Notes under the pieces: model-generated
Seen by the model: only the letters and a program-made list of their open reading frames with translations
Database searches by the model: none
Told to the model about the DNA's origin: nothing
NCBI GenBank assembly: GCA_030123605.1
Contig: CP126123.1
Coordinates: 2,398,001 to 2,462,000 of the forward strand
DNA from: Nitrospira sp.
Lineage (GTDB): Bacteria > Nitrospirota > Nitrospiria > Nitrospirales > Nitrospiraceae
Reading direction: 5' to 3'
DNA length: 64,000 nucleotides
Position numbers and translations under genes: made by a program
In this document: in pieces, positions 8,172 through 18,458 of the stretch
Layout of the letters: each line of letters begins with the position of its first letter
Numbering within the stretch: the first letter of the stretch is position 1

Positions 8172-8954
8172 TTAGCGTTCATGTTTGGCCAGAAACTCTT
8201 CGTAGGGGGAAAAAGCGCGGTAGCCTTTCCCCTTATTGATTCTGGCTTGGCGCGTCCTAGCGATGCGGCCCTGAAGATACTCAAAGAGTGCGCTTGCCTT
8301 TTCAAGTGGCACCAAGCGCCATTGCGCACCGAAATTGCCTTCTATGTTTCGTCCAATGGCACCGTAGTTGAAGTGCGTCTTTCGTGTGGGATCAGAGCCA
8401 GCGAAATCATTGTATCGTTTGATCAGATACTGGATATACCGACTGGCGTTTTGATCGGCGCCGATTGTCCCCAGTGGCACATTCACGGATATTTTCTTCC
8501 TTGTGGCCTTTACGTTGATCGTATGTGCCTGCATGGCACCTGGGCTGTTGATAGCAACATTCCTAGAGTTGTTGACCACGGACATTCTCCGAAAATCGTT
8601 GAGGACTATCTTCGCGAAGAACCCATCTTGCTGTGTCACAGGGCGACCCGCATCGTTTTCGTGAATCGACTTCATTTCCAATAGAGCGTCCACTGTATAG
8701 AGCTCGGGTTCGGAATCGATTACCTTATGGTGATGACGACACAGCAGAATGAGGTTGACAAAGGCCTGCCGATCTTCCTCGGACTGCGCGGGATCGAATC
8801 GGGGGCCGCCGGCCTGCCTCGCTTTGATGTGACAAATCTCACCAGTGACAATGCCAGCGCGCTCAACGATCGGGAGTTGGCATCCAGGATACGCGCAGAT
8901 GTTCCCGGATAGTGCAAATAGTTGTTTGATCGTCTTCTCGGTGAGCTCAGCCAC
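8172..8954 (-). CDS. HNH endonuclease domain protein
   Basis: A 260-residue cassette protein. The N-terminal 110 residues form an HNH nuclease: zinc ligands CAYPGC near 20-25, the HNH His in CHIKARQAGG, and LLCRHHHKVID. The remaining 150 residues, containing a repeated Asn/Val-rich stretch and a basic tail (RTRQARINKGK), are not recognised and may set target specificity. The start is GTG with AAGGA six nt upstream. The stop lies immediately before the attC. Such nucleases in cassettes often belong to defence systems (inference). Confidence 0.85.
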   Translation of the reverse strand: MAELTEKTIKQLFALSGNICAYPGCQLPIVERAGIVTGEICHIKARQAGGPRFDPAQSEEDRQAFVNLILLCRHHHKVIDSEPELYTVDALLEMKSIHENDAGRPVTQQDGFFAKIVLNDFRRMSVVNNSRNVAINSPGAMQAHTINVKATRKKISVNVPLGTIGADQNASRYIQYLIKRYNDFAGSDPTRKTHFNYGAIGRNIEGNFGAQWRLVPLEKASALFEYLQGRIARTRQARINKGKGYRAFSPYEEFLAKHER

Positions 8955-10150: not shown

Positions 10151-10209
10151 GCCGAACGGCGAAGCTCAGTGGCGCCGCTTTCACGGCGTCCGCTGGAGCG
10201 CTTTGTTAG
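10151..10209 (-). repeat. attC site interrupted by an IS5-family element
   Basis: Starts with GCCGAAC (a T-to-G change in the usual GCCTAAC) and ends at GTTAG, where the IS begins. Its body is nearly identical to the attC at 13053-13112. Joining the sequence to the right flank of the IS at 11383 rebuilds GTTAGGT, a correct GTTRRRY core. Confidence 0.8.
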
Positions 10210-10361
10210 GGACGGTCTGATCAATTCACGTGTCCGCTCGGAAATCTGTTCCTGAGCTGATCACCAGGGGGAATTCGGTGGATATCCACTGGTCCGGGCG
10301 CCTGTTTGTGGGGCTCATCCACTGTCCGATGGCCCACTGCAAGCCTCCGGACACACCGCTC

Positions 10362-11309
10362 CTACGTTCCCACCACCAGCCGGTGTCGCGCGACGTACAG
10401 ATTTGCTAAGCCGCATGAGACGAAGAGCCAATTGGTGTTCTTCGCCAGCCCACGGTAGCGGACTTTCGCCCACCCAAAGATCCGCTTGATCACCACGAAC
10501 GCATGTTCGACTTTGGCCCGGACCTTCGATGTTGTCCGGTTCTTTGCCCGCTCCCCCTCACTCAGGGGCCGATGCCGATAGGCTTTGGCCTGGATGAAAC
10601 TCGTGGCTTCAGGGGCGTGTTGCTGAATGACCGCGCGGTGCCCGCTGTAGGCCGCGTCCCCCCAGACCCGCGTCTCCTGGCCATGCAGGAGGTCCGGCAA
10701 CACCTGGCTGTCATGCACGTTGGCCGCGGTGGCCGCCACCGCATGGATCAGCTTGGTTCGGCTGTCCACGCCAATATGCGCCTTCATGCCAAAGTACCAC
10801 TGGTTGCCTTTCTTCGTCTGATGCATCTCCGGATCCCGTTCCTTGGTGCGATTGTTCGTCGAACTGGGGGCGCTGATGATGGTGGCGTCGACGATGGTGC
10901 CCCGGCTGATCTGTAGCCCGTGCTCGGCCAAATACGTCTGGAGCACCCCAAAGAGCTGCTCACCCAACTGGTGCGCCTCCAAGAGATGCCGAAATTTACA
11001 GATGGTGGTCTCGTCGGGCACCGGCTCACGGCCCAGATCAATCCCCACAAAGTGCCGCATGGCCCGTGAGTCGTACAACGCCTCCTCGACCGCCGGGTCC
11101 GACAGATTGAACCATTGTTGCAGACACAGCATGCGTTCGACTCCCACCGGTGGGCGCCCCGGCCCCTCGGCCTTCGGATAGACGGGTTCGATTGCGGCCA
11201 CCAGGTCCGCCCACGGCACGACGCGATTCATTTCGTCGAGAAACCGTTCCCGCCGAGTGGGCTTACGATACTGTTCAAACGTGACCTCGGCAAAGGTCTG
11301 TTGCGGCAT
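10362..11309 (-). CDS. IS5-family transposase (DDE)
   Basis: A 315-residue transposase, intact. It has the N-terminal region common to the IS5 group (FLDEMNRVVPW, then LCLQQWFNLSDPAVEEALYD) and the DDE catalytic residues in GTIVDAT, VWGDAAYSG and the signature R(3)E(6)K (RAKVEHAFVVIK). A GAGGAGG ribosome binding site lies before the ATG but is placed inside a hairpin (11314-11336) that could block translation when transcription enters from outside. Confidence 0.95.
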   Translation of the reverse strand: MPQQTFAEVTFEQYRKPTRRERFLDEMNRVVPWADLVAAIEPVYPKAEGPGRPPVGVERMLCLQQWFNLSDPAVEEALYDSRAMRHFVGIDLGREPVPDETTICKFRHLLEAHQLGEQLFGVLQTYLAEHGLQISRGTIVDATIISAPSSTNNRTKERDPEMHQTKKGNQWYFGMKAHIGVDSRTKLIHAVAATAANVHDSQVLPDLLHGQETRVWGDAAYSGHRAVIQQHAPEATSFIQAKAYRHRPLSEGERAKNRTTSKVRAKVEHAFVVIKRIFGWAKVRYRGLAKNTNWLFVSCGLANLYVARHRLVVGT

Positions 11310-12624: not shown

Positions 12625-12813
12625 TCACTTGATTCTTGGGACTCCAAGATCTTTGCAGATCTTACGTGCCAAGTCGTCATCGATTTCGCTATGCCTCGGA
12701 ACTGCCGAACGTTTGTTCTGGCTGGGATTGTGCCACCACGAATGTCGACCGCCTTCTCTCAGCAACTCACACTGATGTCTCCTGAGATGACGAAGAAGTT
12801 CTTCACGCTTCAT
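12625..12813 (-). CDS. hicA: HicA-family toxin
   Basis: A 62-residue HicA mRNA interferase of the short type, with the active-site His in REGGRHSWWHNP and the usual SEIDDDLARKICKDLGVP ending. The frame is intact. Its ATG overlaps the stop of the upstream hicB gene by four bases, so here the antitoxin gene comes first. Both sit in one cassette closed by the attC at 12564-12623. Confidence 0.88.
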   Translation of the reverse strand: MKREELLRHLRRHQCELLREGGRHSWWHNPSQNKRSAVPRHSEIDDDLARKICKDLGVPRIK

Positions 12814-13022
12814 ACGGCGATAGGCTCTTCTTGAAAGCCCTCGCCTGCCGCCTCGATCGCCTCACGGCGATTGAACTCCAGCGCCTCCTGGAGCGTGGTC
12901 TTCAGTGTCTCGAGCAATTCCTCTTTGGTCCCCTCCTGGCAATTGACGCCTGGCACCTCCTCAATCCATCCGATCCACCATGGACCAGACTGCTTAATAA
13001 CTGCTGTGTAAGCTTCTCGCAT
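12810..13022 (-). CDS. hicB: HicB-family antitoxin
   Basis: A 70-residue antitoxin (MREAYTAVIKQSGPWWIGW, then EEVPGVNCQEGTKEELLETL). The start at 13022 is chosen because GGGAGG lies six nt upstream; in-frame ATG codons further up lack such a box and enter the cassette boundary. It overlaps hicA (ATGA). It should neutralise the downstream HicA. Confidence 0.85.
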   Translation of the reverse strand: MREAYTAVIKQSGPWWIGWIEEVPGVNCQEGTKEELLETLKTTLQEALEFNRREAIEAAGEGFQEEPIAV

Positions 13023-13052: not shown

Positions 13053-13112
13053 GCCTAACGCGAAGCTCAGTGGCGCCGCTTTCACGGCGTCCGCTGGAGC
13101 GCTTTGTTAGGC
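13053..13112 (-). repeat. attC site (60 bp), near twin of the one at 10151
   Basis: Boxes GCCTAAC (13053-13059) and GTTAGGC (13106-13112). The body differs from the attC at 10151-10209 by only a base or two, although the two cassettes encode unrelated proteins. Confidence 0.92.
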
Positions 13113-13126
13113 CGGTGGCGGTTGCC

Positions 13127-14305
13127 TCAACTTTTGAACCACTCATCGATCGCCAAGAGAAGCTGATTCGCGTTGTCTGCTCCATCTTGGGCCTTCGTGA
13201 TTTGCCCCGCATCACAGTACGCCTTCTCGTGCACCAACTCTTTTCGGCATTTCTGGAATTTCTGTGCGGCTTCGATAATTGCTGGTTCTGAGCAACCAAG
13301 CAGCTGAAGTTTATCGGCCAAGGATTTGAAATCGTATTCCTTGAACTTTTTCAGACCGTGATCCCGAACTATCCGAAGATGAAGAAAAGCTTCAAGCCAC
13401 ATTCCCGTGAATACGATCGCGATCATGGCCTGTTTGAAACTCCTCTGCTCATGATCGAAAGTGATAATCCATCCAGGGCTGCCACCATCCTTCAGTCTTC
13501 GGCCCGCGTTGGTGAGTTCATGCATCTTCAAATGGGCACTAATGGCAATGGCTTTGTAGACGGAGACGTTGGTGATGGCGAACTGGTTCATGGTGTTGTT
13601 GGGCATCTTGCGCTTCTGTAACAGGCTTCGCACCTCTTCAACAGTGCGAGGCGGATTCGTCAGATGGATGACTGCATGACAGTTCGGACACACCGGCCGT
13701 AGGTCTTCAACTGGGTCCACCTCGTACTCTGCGCCGACTTCAGAGAGCGGTTTGATGTGATGCACATGGATGAAACCAGCCGCTATCTCGCCATAGATTG
13801 CGCCGAAATCAAAACCACAGGCGGCGCAAATTGCCCCATGCACTTCGATGCATCTTTCTCTAGCAACTGGGTTGCGCTCATATGCATTGACACGCACTTC
13901 TCGAACCGCTCCTTCGAAGAGCGGCTCGCTGTCCCCAACCTCGTTCGCAGATGCTTCGCCAGACGTGGAGTACCCGCTCGCCACAAGGGCATCCACGACT
14001 TCGTTTCTGAGTTGCCATACGAAACCTCGATCGGCGGTATGCGTCCCTGTCGCAATGACATGCCACCATTCATATTCGTCTGGCCCAAGCCCATCGGGAT
14101 GCGCACCAAAGCTCTCTCGGACTTTGCGACCGATGCGGCCCATTGAGTTATTCACCTGAACTACCGCAGACAAGCCGAGGATCTTGCGAAGCTGCCCTGC
14201 GCTTGCGGCTTGATGCGGAGAGAACAGGAGAGCCTGGAACACTCTGGAGTCCGTTCCGGTTAATGTCGGGATGACCGTCTTCACCGCTTCAACTAGCGAC
14301 GACAT
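13127..14305 (-). CDS. HNH endonuclease fused to a HEPN-like domain
   Basis: A 392-residue cassette protein. Residues about 1-120 are unassigned; about 140-235 are an HNH nuclease of the McrA type (ICAACGFDF, HVHHIKPLSEVG, LRPVCPNCHAVIH). After a junction near KRKMPNNTMNQ, the last 160 residues are helical and end with RKELVHEK, an R-x4-H pattern typical of HEPN RNase domains. The combination suggests a nucleic-acid-targeting defence protein (inference). The DNA at the junction contains a GTTGGGC core box (13598-13604), so the gene may join two former cassettes. Confidence 0.8.
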   Translation of the reverse strand: MSSLVEAVKTVIPTLTGTDSRVFQALLFSPHQAASAGQLRKILGLSAVVQVNNSMGRIGRKVRESFGAHPDGLGPDEYEWWHVIATGTHTADRGFVWQLRNEVVDALVASGYSTSGEASANEVGDSEPLFEGAVREVRVNAYERNPVARERCIEVHGAICAACGFDFGAIYGEIAAGFIHVHHIKPLSEVGAEYEVDPVEDLRPVCPNCHAVIHLTNPPRTVEEVRSLLQKRKMPNNTMNQFAITNVSVYKAIAISAHLKMHELTNAGRRLKDGGSPGWIITFDHEQRSFKQAMIAIVFTGMWLEAFLHLRIVRDHGLKKFKEYDFKSLADKLQLLGCSEPAIIEAAQKFQKCRKELVHEKAYCDAGQITKAQDGADNANQLLLAIDEWFKS

Positions 14306-14322: not shown

Positions 14323-14394
14323 CGCCTAACGCCCGCGTTGACCGGGCGCGGCGAGCGTGTGCGAGCCAGCGGTCCGGTCGAACGCGATGTTATG
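14323..14394 (-). repeat. attC site (72 bp)
   Basis: Boxes GCCTAAC (14323-14329) and GTTATGC (14388-14394) with inner arms CGTTGACCGGGCGC and CCGGTCGAACGCG. The hicB stop codon is formed in the right-hand box. Confidence 0.9.
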
Positions 14395-14614
14395 CGGCTT
14401 CTACCTCAATGAGTTCGCTTGTGGAGGAAGGGGCCGGGATCGGTTGCCCCTCTTCCTTCAATCCCTCTAGGTGAAGCTCAATCGCTTCGCGAATCAGCGA
14501 AAGGACCTCATCCTTCGATTCACCAGCCGCGACGCATCCGGGAAGGTCTGGAACATACGCGCCAAAGGAGGCGAGTCCCTTTTCGATGACGACGAGGTAT
14601 CGCATACGTTTCAT
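14390..14614 (-). CDS. hicB: HicB-family antitoxin
   Basis: A 74-residue HicB protein (MRYLVVIEKGLASFGAYVPD, LPGCVAAGESKDEVLSLIREA). It is translationally coupled to the upstream hicA through an ATGA overlap. In this module the toxin gene comes first, unlike the one at 12625-13022. The end of the gene lies in the attC core. Confidence 0.88.
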   Translation of the reverse strand: MKRMRYLVVIEKGLASFGAYVPDLPGCVAAGESKDEVLSLIREAIELHLEGLKEEGQPIPAPSSTSELIEVEAA

Positions 14615-14805
14615 TGCTCCTTTTTGAGCCCGGCCTGCTTCAACGCACTGTTCAAGGTGCCCGGCGGAATGTCAATACTTGGCTTTCCCGCAACCGTCAC
14701 TGTGCCCTTCTTCGTCGGATGATGAAATTGGCGATGGCTTCCTTTCATTCGAACCTGAAACCATCCATCGGACTCAAGCATCTCGATGAGTTCTTTGACC
14801 TTCAT
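14611..14805 (-). CDS. hicA: HicA-family toxin
   Basis: A 64-residue HicA with the active-site segment RMKGSHRQFHHPTKKG, then TVAGKPSIDIPPGTLNSALKQAG. Complete and in frame. It forms a cassette with hicB downstream. Family members cleave mRNA when the antitoxin is degraded. Confidence 0.9.
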   Translation of the reverse strand: MKVKELIEMLESDGWFQVRMKGSHRQFHHPTKKGTVTVAGKPSIDIPPGTLNSALKQAGLKKEQ

Positions 14806-14838
14806 GCGCCGAAGCCTACTCCCGCTCGTTTCTGAGCG

Positions 14839-14907
14839 GCATAACGCCGGTGTTCACGGGCGCCGAGCGCGAAGCGCGAAGGCGTCCCGTGGAACACCTT
14901 GCTATGA
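14839..14907 (-). repeat. attC site (69 bp)
   Basis: Box GCATAAC (14839-14845) and a weak second box GCTATGA (14901-14907). Strong inner arms GGTGTTCACGGGCGCC and GGCGTCCCGTGGAACACC support it. Confidence 0.8.
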
Positions 14908-16073: not shown

Positions 16074-16131
16074 GTCTAACGTTGGAGTTCAGCGGCTGCC
16101 GAAGGCAGTCCGCTGGAACGAATTGTTGGGC
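16074..16131 (-). repeat. attC site (58 bp)
   Basis: Boxes GTCTAAC (16074-16080) and GTTGGGC (16125-16131) with a clear inner hairpin (AGCGGCTGCC/GGCAGTCCGCT). The first cassette gene is translated into it and adds about twelve residues from it. Confidence 0.9.
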
Positions 16132-16931
16132 GTCTGCGCTGCATGCCATAGCTCCATGACGAAAATGACCAGCGAATGAGCCGCGTTCACGGCGAGGCGA
16201 GCCTCGGGAACAGCAATCTGTGGGGGATTGAGGCCGCGGCCGTGGGCGGAGCCGATGTGCGTGCGGTATGCGCCGACACCATCAACTATTGATGCCAGCC
16301 CCTGCAAGACGCGCTTCTGATCATCCCGAAGTGTCGAGTCTAGGTTGAGCCCAAGATGCCCTTGAACCACGCGCCATACCGGCCCGATGGACTGGTTCGC
16401 TGGCATATCAAGACCGAATGTTTCGATGTACGTCTTGCAGAGCGCTTCGATTATTGAACTGGCCGCTGTTATGGCTGCGTGCGGGTCTCGATCAAGCTGC
16501 TTGATTGCTCGTTCAAACTCGGCCTCAATGGATGCGAAGTCCCCAGCATTCAGGTAATCCGCGAGAGTCTTGGCAGCGAGACTTGCACCGGCAAGAGTGA
16601 CGAAGCCGTTGACTTGGTAAGTGAGCTGGTTTTTCGCGAGGCTTTCGCGAATGCGGCGTTGTCCTTCTGCAATTTCGGGTTGCCAATCCGAAGGCTCTTG
16701 ATCCATGAACTTCTGGATGACTTGCCCAAGCACTGCAAGCGGATCGACCGATGGGTCATCGTTGCACCGACGAAGCCATGCCGCGGACTTGGTCTCGCAG
16801 TTGCCGGGCGGTACATCACCCGGGGCGCCACTTTCCATGAACAGCGAGTTGAGCGTGGAGTGGCTGTAGTAGTAGGCCGCGATGACCGACGCCACGGCAC
16901 CAATCACTGAGTTTGGAATCTTGCTAGGCAC
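16089..16931 (-). CDS. Abi_C (abortive infection C-terminal) domain protein
   Basis: A 280-residue product of the first cassette. The C-terminal half matches the Abi_C domain: DPHAAITAASSIIEALCKTY, then a Pro-Val-Trp region, and the HEPN-like RTHIGSAHGRG. Such proteins are linked to phage abortive infection and probably act as RNases when triggered. The N-terminal half is unassigned. The start is GTG at 16931 with GGAGGAGG five nt upstream; a longer frame to 16988 would cross the attI junction. The last twelve residues (NNSFQRTAFGSR) come from the attC. Confidence 0.78.
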   Translation of the reverse strand: MPSKIPNSVIGAVASVIAAYYYSHSTLNSLFMESGAPGDVPPGNCETKSAAWLRRCNDDPSVDPLAVLGQVIQKFMDQEPSDWQPEIAEGQRRIRESLAKNQLTYQVNGFVTLAGASLAAKTLADYLNAGDFASIEAEFERAIKQLDRDPHAAITAASSIIEALCKTYIETFGLDMPANQSIGPVWRVVQGHLGLNLDSTLRDDQKRVLQGLASIVDGVGAYRTHIGSAHGRGLNPPQIAVPEARLAVNAAHSLVIFVMELWHAAQTPNNSFQRTAFGSR

Positions 16932-17090
16932 GCATGCCTCCTCCTGACGCCCAACTATTGAGTAGATTGGTCGGCCTATCCCGGCCAACCTACTTCGTGA
17001 TTCTCGTCAATCCTATTAAGCTTTTTCGGTACTTAGCAAGAAATTTCTCGCCCCTCCGGAGCCGGGGCAAACACTGCACGTCTGGTCAGA
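16932..17090 (-). other. Candidate attI region next to the 3' end of intI
   Basis: The first cassette joins at GCCCAAC (16949-16955; GTTGGGC on the minus strand). Between this point and the intI stop lie a short inverted repeat GGTCGGCC/GGCCAACC (16969-16990) and a candidate cassette promoter. By position this is attI, placed at the 3' end of the integrase gene rather than its 5' end. The extent is inferred. Confidence 0.65.
17010..17039 (-). promoter_or_regulatory. Candidate cassette promoter Pc
   Basis: On the minus strand, -35 TTGCTA (17034-17039) and -10 TAGGAT (17010-17015) are 18 bp apart, pointing into the array about 70 bp before the first cassette start codon. Confidence 0.5.
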
Positions 17091-18458
17091 CTATCCCGGC
17101 GCACCGTTACCTCGCCACTCCATTCCGAGGCGGTCAGCCGGGCTGTGGATTCCCCGGCCGCCACGGTTTAGGACATGCGTGTAGATCATCGTCGTGCTCA
17201 CATCTCTGTGCCCCAGCAATTCTTGGACCGTCCGAATATCATACCCGTCCTCCAGCAGATGGGTCGCAAAGGAGTGGCGCAACGTATGGCAGCTTGCCGG
17301 CTTGGCGATCCCGGCTTTCAGTCGGGCTGCCTTGAAGGCGCGCTGCAGGACGGACTCGTGCAGGTGGTGCCTCCGCCGCTCGCCGGTGACGCGATCAGTG
17401 TAATGGCTCGTGGCGGGAAAGACCCAGTGCCATGCCCACTCCGTCCCGGCGTTGGGGTACTTCCGTTCCAAGGCGTTGGGCAAGGCGACACAGCCCGAAC
17501 CGTTCCTGAGATCGTCCTGATGTTGGCTCTTCACCTTCTGCAAATGACGAAGCAGCGCCTCCTTGATCACTGCAGGCAACGTGGTATAGCGGTCCTTGTC
17601 CCCCTTGCCAGCCCGAACCACGATCTGACTCTGAGAGAAGTCAATGTCTTTGACTCGTAGACGGCAACACTCCAGCAGGCGCAGTCCCGCACCATACAGG
17701 AGCATCGCCATTAACCAGGGAGTGCCGCTTAAGCCACTGAGCACGCGTTTGACTTCCTCCCGTGTCAGGACCACGGGCAACCGTCTTGGCTTTTTGGCGC
17801 GGACCACGCCGTTCACGTACCCGATGGCGTTGCCTAAGACCTCGCGGTAGAGAAACAACAGGGCATTCAACGCCTGATTCTGCGTCGAGGCGCTGACGTG
17901 CGCGTCACTGGCCAAGCATGACAGGAAGTGGCCAATCTCCACTTCGCCCATCTCTGCCGGATGACGCTTGTGATGGGAAGTGATGAATCGCCTGATCCAT
18001 CCAACATACGCCTCCTCGGTTCGATGACTAAAATGCCGGGCACGGATCGCTTGGCGAACCTGGTCCAGGAGCTCTGGCCTTGGCGCCGTTGGCGGCGGCT
18101 CCCGCTGATCGAGGGCCATCGCCGGACGAAGCGACTGATCGACTTCGATCTGCTCTCCTGCAAAGAGCGTGAGCAGGTGCGAGACAGCCCCGCCAGTTCT
18201 TGGCACGGTCCAATATCGGCCCTCGGGGTGCCACCGGCATCCCTTCATGCGCTTGATCGTCGCGACCCGGTTCGGGTGATAGGGGAGGACGATTTTGAGC
18301 CGGCCGGCTTCTGCCGTGGTGATCTGGATCGATCCGTGTCCCATGGTCTTCGCCAAGAGCACGTGGGAATCAGGGCCACACTCGGGTGTAAGCCGCCTTC
18401 TTCTGTTCAACGTCAGTTCGATTTGAGGGTTGACTACAAGTAGCGTTGCAGAGTCCAC
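17091..18458 (-). CDS. intI: Integron integrase with an extra N-terminal domain
   Basis: A tyrosine recombinase of 455 residues. Catalytic residues are Arg260 (GAGLR), Lys near 285-288, His391-x2-Arg394, His417 (LLGH) and Tyr426. Residues about 326-375 are the patch specific to integron integrases ([17 protein letters not shown], then a WVFPA segment and RRRHHL), so this is IntI rather than XerC/D. Class 1 IntI is about 337 residues; here about 115 extra residues precede the core-binding domain. They include [18 protein letters not shown], which resembles the HARP-type DNA-structure-binding fold. The start is GTG at 18458; ATG at 18344 is a credible alternative that still keeps this domain. 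Confidence 0.95.

What the first reader, a model, noticed from the sequence alone, without database searches (positions are those of the whole stretch)
13127..14305. HNH-HEPN fusion with a cassette core box at the domain junction
The gene joins a McrA-type HNH nuclease to a helical domain ending in an R-x4-H HEPN motif. Exactly at the junction the DNA reads GCCCAACAA on the coding strand (GTTGGGC at 13598-13604), the start of an attC as seen after the first cassette (16125-16131), and translates to MPNNT much like the attC-coded PNNS there. This suggests two cassette genes fused after loss of most of the attC between them.
Basis: partly seen in the sequence, partly recalled or inferred. Interest (0 to 1): 0.6.

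Follow-up and report, generated by a model that had tools for sequence, protein, structure and literature searches.

The report
Two integron cassettes fused: HNH–HEPN nuclease
In a Nitrospira integron, a DNA-cutting gene and a probable RNA-cutting gene that occur elsewhere as separate mobile cassettes have become one protein after the recombination site between them was lost down to its first seven bases; this looks like a composite anti-phage defence protein made by cassette fusion.

Summary
ORF 13127-14305(-), 392 aa, has an McrA-like HNH domain followed by a helical domain with an invariant R-x4-H. GCCCAAC (13598-13604) is the only RYYYAAC in the gene and lies in the 5-residue linker. The fusion reading is well supported. 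(1) The C-terminal half exists elsewhere only as a standalone gene (~150-160 aa; more than 15 loci in Nitrospirota, Pseudomonadota, Planctomycetota, Myxococcota), several flanked by attC or next to intI. (2) Standalone HNH relatives end where the fusion turns into linker; two are followed directly by attC-like sites, but with weak scores. (3) In close relatives the HEPN start codon follows attC R' by about 6 nt; in the fusion R'' sits exactly at the R' position, as if everything from after R'' through R' had been deleted. (4) No second HNH-HEPN protein was found. Beyond the finding, this HEPN family also sits beside other endonucleases: a Mrr-HEPN pair lacking an intervening attC, a Shedu-HEPN pair, and intI-HEPN-Mrr_cat. 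Fused cassettes and HEPN-HNH fusions are each known; a translational fusion of two putative defence cassettes with the attC scar preserved appears to be a new variant. HEPN fold, both catalytic activities and phage defence are inferred, not shown.

The parts
13127..14305 (-). fused gene, 392 aa: N-terminal domain + HNH + linker + HEPN-like domain
   Evidence: only full-length copy seen
13931..14305 (-). N-terminal domain (res. 1-125), unknown; no relative in phages or plasmids, weak HTH_20 hint
   Evidence: low-confidence model
13607..13930 (-). McrA-type HNH nuclease domain (res. 126-233), catalytic and zinc residues conserved (C160, C163, H182, H183, C206, C209, H210, H214)
13592..13606 (-). 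linker MPNNT (res. 234-238) at the junction
   Evidence: HNH relatives end at the matching place; HEPN relatives start right after it
13598..13604 (-). GCCCAAC = attC R'' (1L core) remnant, located where standalone HEPN cassettes have R'
13130..13591 (-). HEPN-like domain (res. 239-392)
13229..13246 (-). R354-x4-H359 motif (RKELVH)
   Evidence: invariant in 17 relatives
13053..13112 (-). attC of the fused cassette (intact)
   Evidence: CM R1, E=7e-14; this site was used to build R1
14324..14395 (-). attC of the preceding cassette; its R' gives the 5' edge of the fused cassette (TTAGGC from 14329)
   Evidence: CM R1
16074..16131 (-). attC after cassette 1, read in the same frame as the remnant (TPNNSFQRTAFGSR*)
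17091..18458 (-). integron integrase (TIGR02249), pointing the same way as the cassettes
   Evidence: E=5e-139

Best explanation
A translational fusion of two integron gene cassettes. An HNH cassette (unknown N-terminal domain plus McrA-type HNH) stood upstream of a HEPN-family cassette. Its attC was deleted from just after R'' through R', probably by slippage across the attC hairpin at a short repeat (for example ACAA). The HNH reading frame, which as in cassette 1 of this array could read into R'' in the PNN frame and stop inside the attC, thereby ran on into the HEPN gene. The fused pair moves as one cassette on the HEPN cassette's attC. Most likely function: a two-warhead defence effector. 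The N-terminal domain and HNH recognise and cut foreign DNA; the HEPN domain cuts RNA, halting the cell when DNA cleavage is engaged or fails. Shown: the fusion anatomy, conserved active-site residues, cassette context, and separate counterparts. Inferred: the deletion mechanism, the HEPN fold, both enzyme activities, their coupling, and phage defence. My confidence is about 0.9 for the cassette fusion, about 0.6 for a defence role and about 0.4 for a coupled DNase-RNase mechanism; the single figure given is a compromise.
For: Separate counterparts with cassette flanks. R'' at the exact R' place: GCCCAAC|AACACC|ATG versus GTTAGGT|AACTAT|ATG (L031) and GTTTGAC|AACACC|ATG (L026/L027); joining GCCCA[ACAA]T to GTTAG[ACAA]CACCATG reproduces the observed letters. 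The fused sequence nests in a clade of standalone HEPNs, support 94/95. The HEPN half has lower G+C, 0.487 versus 0.561 for the HNH half. Precedents: GES-1/aacA4, where the attC is reduced to the 1L core (PMC4670013); a bifunctional fused-cassette protein and attC-stem slippage as a proposed cause (PMC8876359). Function: HNH residues conserved, R-x4-H invariant, McrA and mREase_IV matches. The same HEPN family sits beside Mrr (L029/L030), SduA_C with putAbiC (L034) and Mrr_cat in an integron (L036). HEPN-DNase linkage is a known theme in defence (PMC3710099).
Against: Only one fused copy is known, so selection on the joined frame cannot be tested. No standalone copy with this N-terminal domain was found as a direct precursor. 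The R'' remnant is only 7 nt. HNH-cassette attC sites score weakly (E about 0.03). The HEPN fold search is not significant (best E=0.32) and no Pfam family matches. M239 could be an internal start giving a separate HEPN protein. Most HEPN loci have no nuclease neighbour.
Confidence: 0.72

Rival explanations
1. The fusion is real, but GCCCAAC is a chance 7-mer; the two genes were joined by an ordinary deletion unrelated to attC hairpin biology.
For: Seven bases carry little information; linker codons CCC AAC AAC are ordinary.
Against: It is the only RYYYAAC in the gene, lies at the exact R' place (chance about 0.0006), and is read in the same frame as the intact attC of cassette 1. The Mrr-HEPN pair in L029 also has an R''-type 7-mer, ATCTAAC, at the same place; its relative L030 has GGCTAAC, one mismatch.
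Confidence: 0.15
2. The reverse: an ancient HNH-HEPN protein was split and the halves became separate cassettes.
For: The root of the HEPN tree is unresolved.
Against: Standalone HEPNs span four phyla while the fused form is one tip inside a supported clade; HNH relatives carry different N-terminal domains and no HEPN.
Confidence: 0.03
3. The HEPN-like domain is not a nuclease toxin but an accessory or inhibitor subunit of the DNA endonuclease (multimerisation, restraint or regulation), as suggested by its standalone form beside several nucleases.
For: Standalone copies have no recognisable antitoxin next door in most loci; paired with unrelated nuclease families.
Against: R and H are invariant in all 17 relatives, as expected of a catalytic HEPN.
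Confidence: 0.25
4. The ORF is translated as two proteins, with the HEPN made from internal M239, so the fusion is operon-like rather than bifunctional.
For: M239 and its 6-nt leader are kept as in standalone HEPN cassettes.
Against: The frame is open across the junction without a stop; no Shine-Dalgarno-like stretch is seen before M239.
Confidence: 0.15

Closest known systems
Fused gene cassettes of resistance integrons (blaGES-1/aacA4; ant(3'')-Ii/aac(6')-IId)
   Same: Two cassette genes in one cassette after loss of the upstream attC; in GES-1/aacA4 the attC is cut down to the 6-bp 1L core, as here; the aminoglycoside pair makes one bifunctional protein (PMC4670013, PMC8876359).
   Different: Putative defence genes in a chromosomal Nitrospira integron; excision as a unit not tested.
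HEPN-endoDNase fusions in R-M/defence loci (Anantharaman et al. 2013, PMC3710099)
   Same: HEPN domain physically linked to an HNH or REase-fold DNase.
   Different: This HEPN family has no Pfam match, is usually standalone and often cassette-borne, and the fusion junction preserves an attC core. Whether it is the paper's 'Integron cassette HEPN' (3jrt) was not settled; a profile search found no PDB relative.
EcoKMcrA (type IV restriction, 6ghc)
   Same: HNH domain homologous (E=8e-6).
   Different: N-terminal domain not detectably related; modified-base specificity unknown; the 6ghc match shows no HEPN domain.
HepT/MntA-type HEPN toxins
   Same: Rx4H motif; the highest-probability Foldseek hits are mostly HepT-type toxins (1wwp, 6m6w, 7bxo, 8xeh).
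   Different: No MNT antitoxin recognised beside it; similarity not significant by E-value.

Membership tests
Fused integron gene cassette | two complete coding regions between one 5' cassette edge and one 3' attC | tested here: met
   attC at 14324-14395 and 13053-13112, none between; HNH and HEPN parts complete against standalone relatives
[quoted passage not shown]
   only the R'' core GCCCAAC remains
Fused integron gene cassette | the two genes exist elsewhere as separate cassettes | tested here: met
   HEPN: L079, L011, L028, L036, L032; HNH: L014, L013 with weak attC scores and other N-terminal domains
Fused integron gene cassette | excised by integrase as one unit | not testable with these tools
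   needs inverse PCR of circular forms
HEPN superfamily | Rx4-6H motif | tested here: met
   R354-x4-H359, invariant in 17 sequences
HEPN superfamily | HEPN helical fold | tested here: inconclusive
   AF2 pLDDT 83, helical; HepT toxins lead by probability (0.5-0.9) but E >= 0.3
HEPN superfamily | match to a known HEPN family profile | tested here: not met
   no Pfam or NCBIfam match above cut-off
HEPN superfamily | RNase activity | not testable with these tools
   bench assay needed
McrA-type HNH endonuclease | HNH domain with conserved His and Cys pairs | tested here: met
   PF01844 above cut-off; residues invariant
McrA-type HNH endonuclease | N-terminal domain binding modified DNA | tested here: inconclusive
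   no similarity detected for res. 1-125; poor model
McrA-type HNH endonuclease | restriction of modified DNA | not testable with these tools
   phage challenge needed

The most novel reading that the evidence does not exclude
This HEPN family is a portable cassette-borne partner that has been joined repeatedly and independently to different DNA endonucleases (HNH in frame, Mrr in one cassette, Shedu, Mrr_cat), and integrons drive this by losing the attC down to R'': integrons as a workshop for building composite defence systems.
Probability: 0.4. Interest if true: 0.68.

Novelty: new variant of a known kind. Interest (0 to 1): 0.52.

Why it matters
Integrons are known to shuffle whole genes. 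Here the scar of a cassette-cassette fusion is still legible, with separate counterparts of both halves at hand, and the product joins a DNase to a probable RNase. It makes testable the idea that multi-domain defence proteins can be assembled from cassettes, and points to an unnamed HEPN family that several times sits with DNA endonucleases.

Tried and rejected
A first attC finder was too strict and missed most sites; it was replaced by covariance model R1. Viral contigs and phages hold no HEPN relative. A full-length mixed alignment was misaligned by MAFFT and not folded. The HNH-half model was poor except for the HNH domain; Foldseek gave only Cap5-like HNH hints. An apparent fused match on a Burkholderia plasmid (L025) is a spurious extension through a stop codon. 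A simple stop-codon point mutation as the cause of fusion was considered: standalone HNH genes L013/L014 stop at the TAA inside R'', but in another frame from the fusion, so it does not explain the join.

Full report
What is there. The gene at 14305->13127(-) is one open frame of 392 aa. Residues 160-211 match Pfam HNH (E=1e-5) and residues 140-221 match EcoKMcrA (6ghc, E=8e-6). The C-terminal 154 residues have no Pfam or PDB sequence match but belong to a clear family whose R-x4-H and following EKA are invariant in 17 aligned members. AlphaFold gives a helical domain (pLDDT 83). The PDB hits with the highest probability are mostly HepT-type HEPN toxins (1wwp 0.89, 6m6w 0.80, 7bxo, 8xeh), but none is significant by E-value, so 'HEPN' rests on motif plus a weak fold signal.

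It lies in an integron. A 455-aa integrase (TIGR02249, E=5e-139) at 17091-18458(-) is followed by ten attC sites, all on the minus strand, found by a covariance model; eight of them were used to build it and two (10151-10211, 14839-14907) are new. The fused gene has an attC on each side (14324-14395, 13053-13112) and none inside. The host is taken to be a Nitrospira because its nearest relatives with named records are Nitrospira; the window itself carries no name.

Both halves exist apart. The HEPN half was found in open frames of 130-199 aa in all other places: 8 of 396 and 6 of 336 sampled Nitrospirota genomes (overlapping samples, own genome counted), 15 loci in a scan of 84,980 species genomes by one conserved peptide, and rare hits elsewhere. 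Cassette context: attC directly upstream in L079 (E=1e-8) and L011 (6e-4), directly downstream in L028 (8e-4) and L026 (0.017); L032 has an evident attC over its stop codon; in L036 the HEPN is the first gene after an integron integrase. The HNH domain is common with other N-terminal domains and ends where the fusion's linker begins (..EEVRDLLRRRSGV* in L013 versus ..EEVRSLLQKRK-MPNNT). In L013 and L014 an attC-like site starts at the stop codon, though the model scores are weak (E about 0.03). L014 has a second, better-scored site (E=0.002) further on.

The scar. In several standalone copies the HEPN start codon follows an attC R'-like core closely: GTTAGGT|AACTAT|ATG (L031), GTTAAGA|AACTCT|ATG (L028), and a tandem GTTAGACAACA-GTTTGAC|AACACC|ATG (L026/L027). 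The spacing is longer in some (L032, L036, L011, L079). The fusion reads GCCCAAC|AACACC|ATG: R'' stands exactly where R' should. Deleting from after R'' through R' gives this; joining GCCCA[ACAA]T (as in cassette 1's attC) to GTTAG[ACAA]CACC (as in L026) reproduces every letter, although another overlap would give a product three bases shorter. The frame through GCCCAAC is the one used by cassette 1, whose gene stops inside its attC; losing the attC would then remove the stop by itself. GCCCAAC is the only RYYYAAC in the gene. Precedent: in blaGES-1/aacA4 the first attC is likewise reduced to the 1L core (PMC4670013), and slippage across attC stem-loops is a proposed route to fused cassettes (PMC8876359).

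Direction. In a maximum-likelihood tree the fused HEPN sits inside a clade of standalone copies (94/95), so fusion rather than fission is favoured; the root is unresolved. G+C differs between halves, 0.561 versus 0.487.

A wider pattern. In two Nitrospira genomes (L029, L030) a complete Mrr endonuclease (Mrr_N plus Mrr_cat, E=4e-37, tested on L029) directly precedes the HEPN with no attC between; in L029 an attC (E=2e-7) lies just upstream of Mrr, and the 7-mer before the HEPN leader is ATCTAAC, again R''-type (GGCTAAC in L030, one mismatch). In L034 the order is putAbiC, SduA_C (Shedu nuclease), HEPN; in L036 it is intI, HEPN, a Mrr_cat protein. So about four of some thirteen independent contexts pair this HEPN with a DNA endonuclease. 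No background rate was measured, and defence genes are common in integrons, so this is suggestive only.

Function. Type IV-like HNH plus HEPN suggests a DNase-RNase defence effector. HEPN domains linked to REase-fold and HNH DNases in restriction and abortive-infection loci are described (PMC3710099). The array also holds an AbiJ-like cassette (16089-16988, Abi_C E=6e-16) and an HNH cassette like PADLOC PDC-M68A (8172-8954, E=2e-30). Nothing here shows activity.

Verdict. Observation confirmed; interpretation supported; new variant of a known kind.

Noticed in passing
17091-18458(-): The integrase points in the same direction as the cassettes ('reversed' integron layout), unlike the usual opposite arrangement.
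   Followed up: partly
18070-18458(-): The integrase has about 129 extra N-terminal residues before the integron-integrase match (130-444 of 455).
   Followed up: no
10159-10210 and 13060-13111: Two attC sites share 52 identical bases, with an IS5-family transposase gene (10362-11309) and other cassettes between them.
   Followed up: no
16089-16988(-): Cassette 1 encodes an AbiJ-like (Abi_C) protein whose C-terminus TPNNSFQRTAFGSR is encoded by its attC.
   Followed up: partly
8172-8954(-): Another HNH cassette protein, similar to PADLOC PDC-M68A and to CBASS/SAVED-HNH effectors.
   Followed up: no
14400-14810(-) and 12640-12830(-): Small gene pairs that look like HicA/HicB toxin-antitoxin cassettes (by reading the sequence only).
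   Followed up: no
L034 188-2674: Gene order putAbiC - SduA_C (Shedu) - HEPN in a Nitrospirota genome: a possible composite defence operon.
   Followed up: partly
L029 3961-5471, L030 4069-5471: Mrr endonuclease and HEPN in one apparent cassette without an attC between: a second nuclease-HEPN joining.
   Followed up: partly
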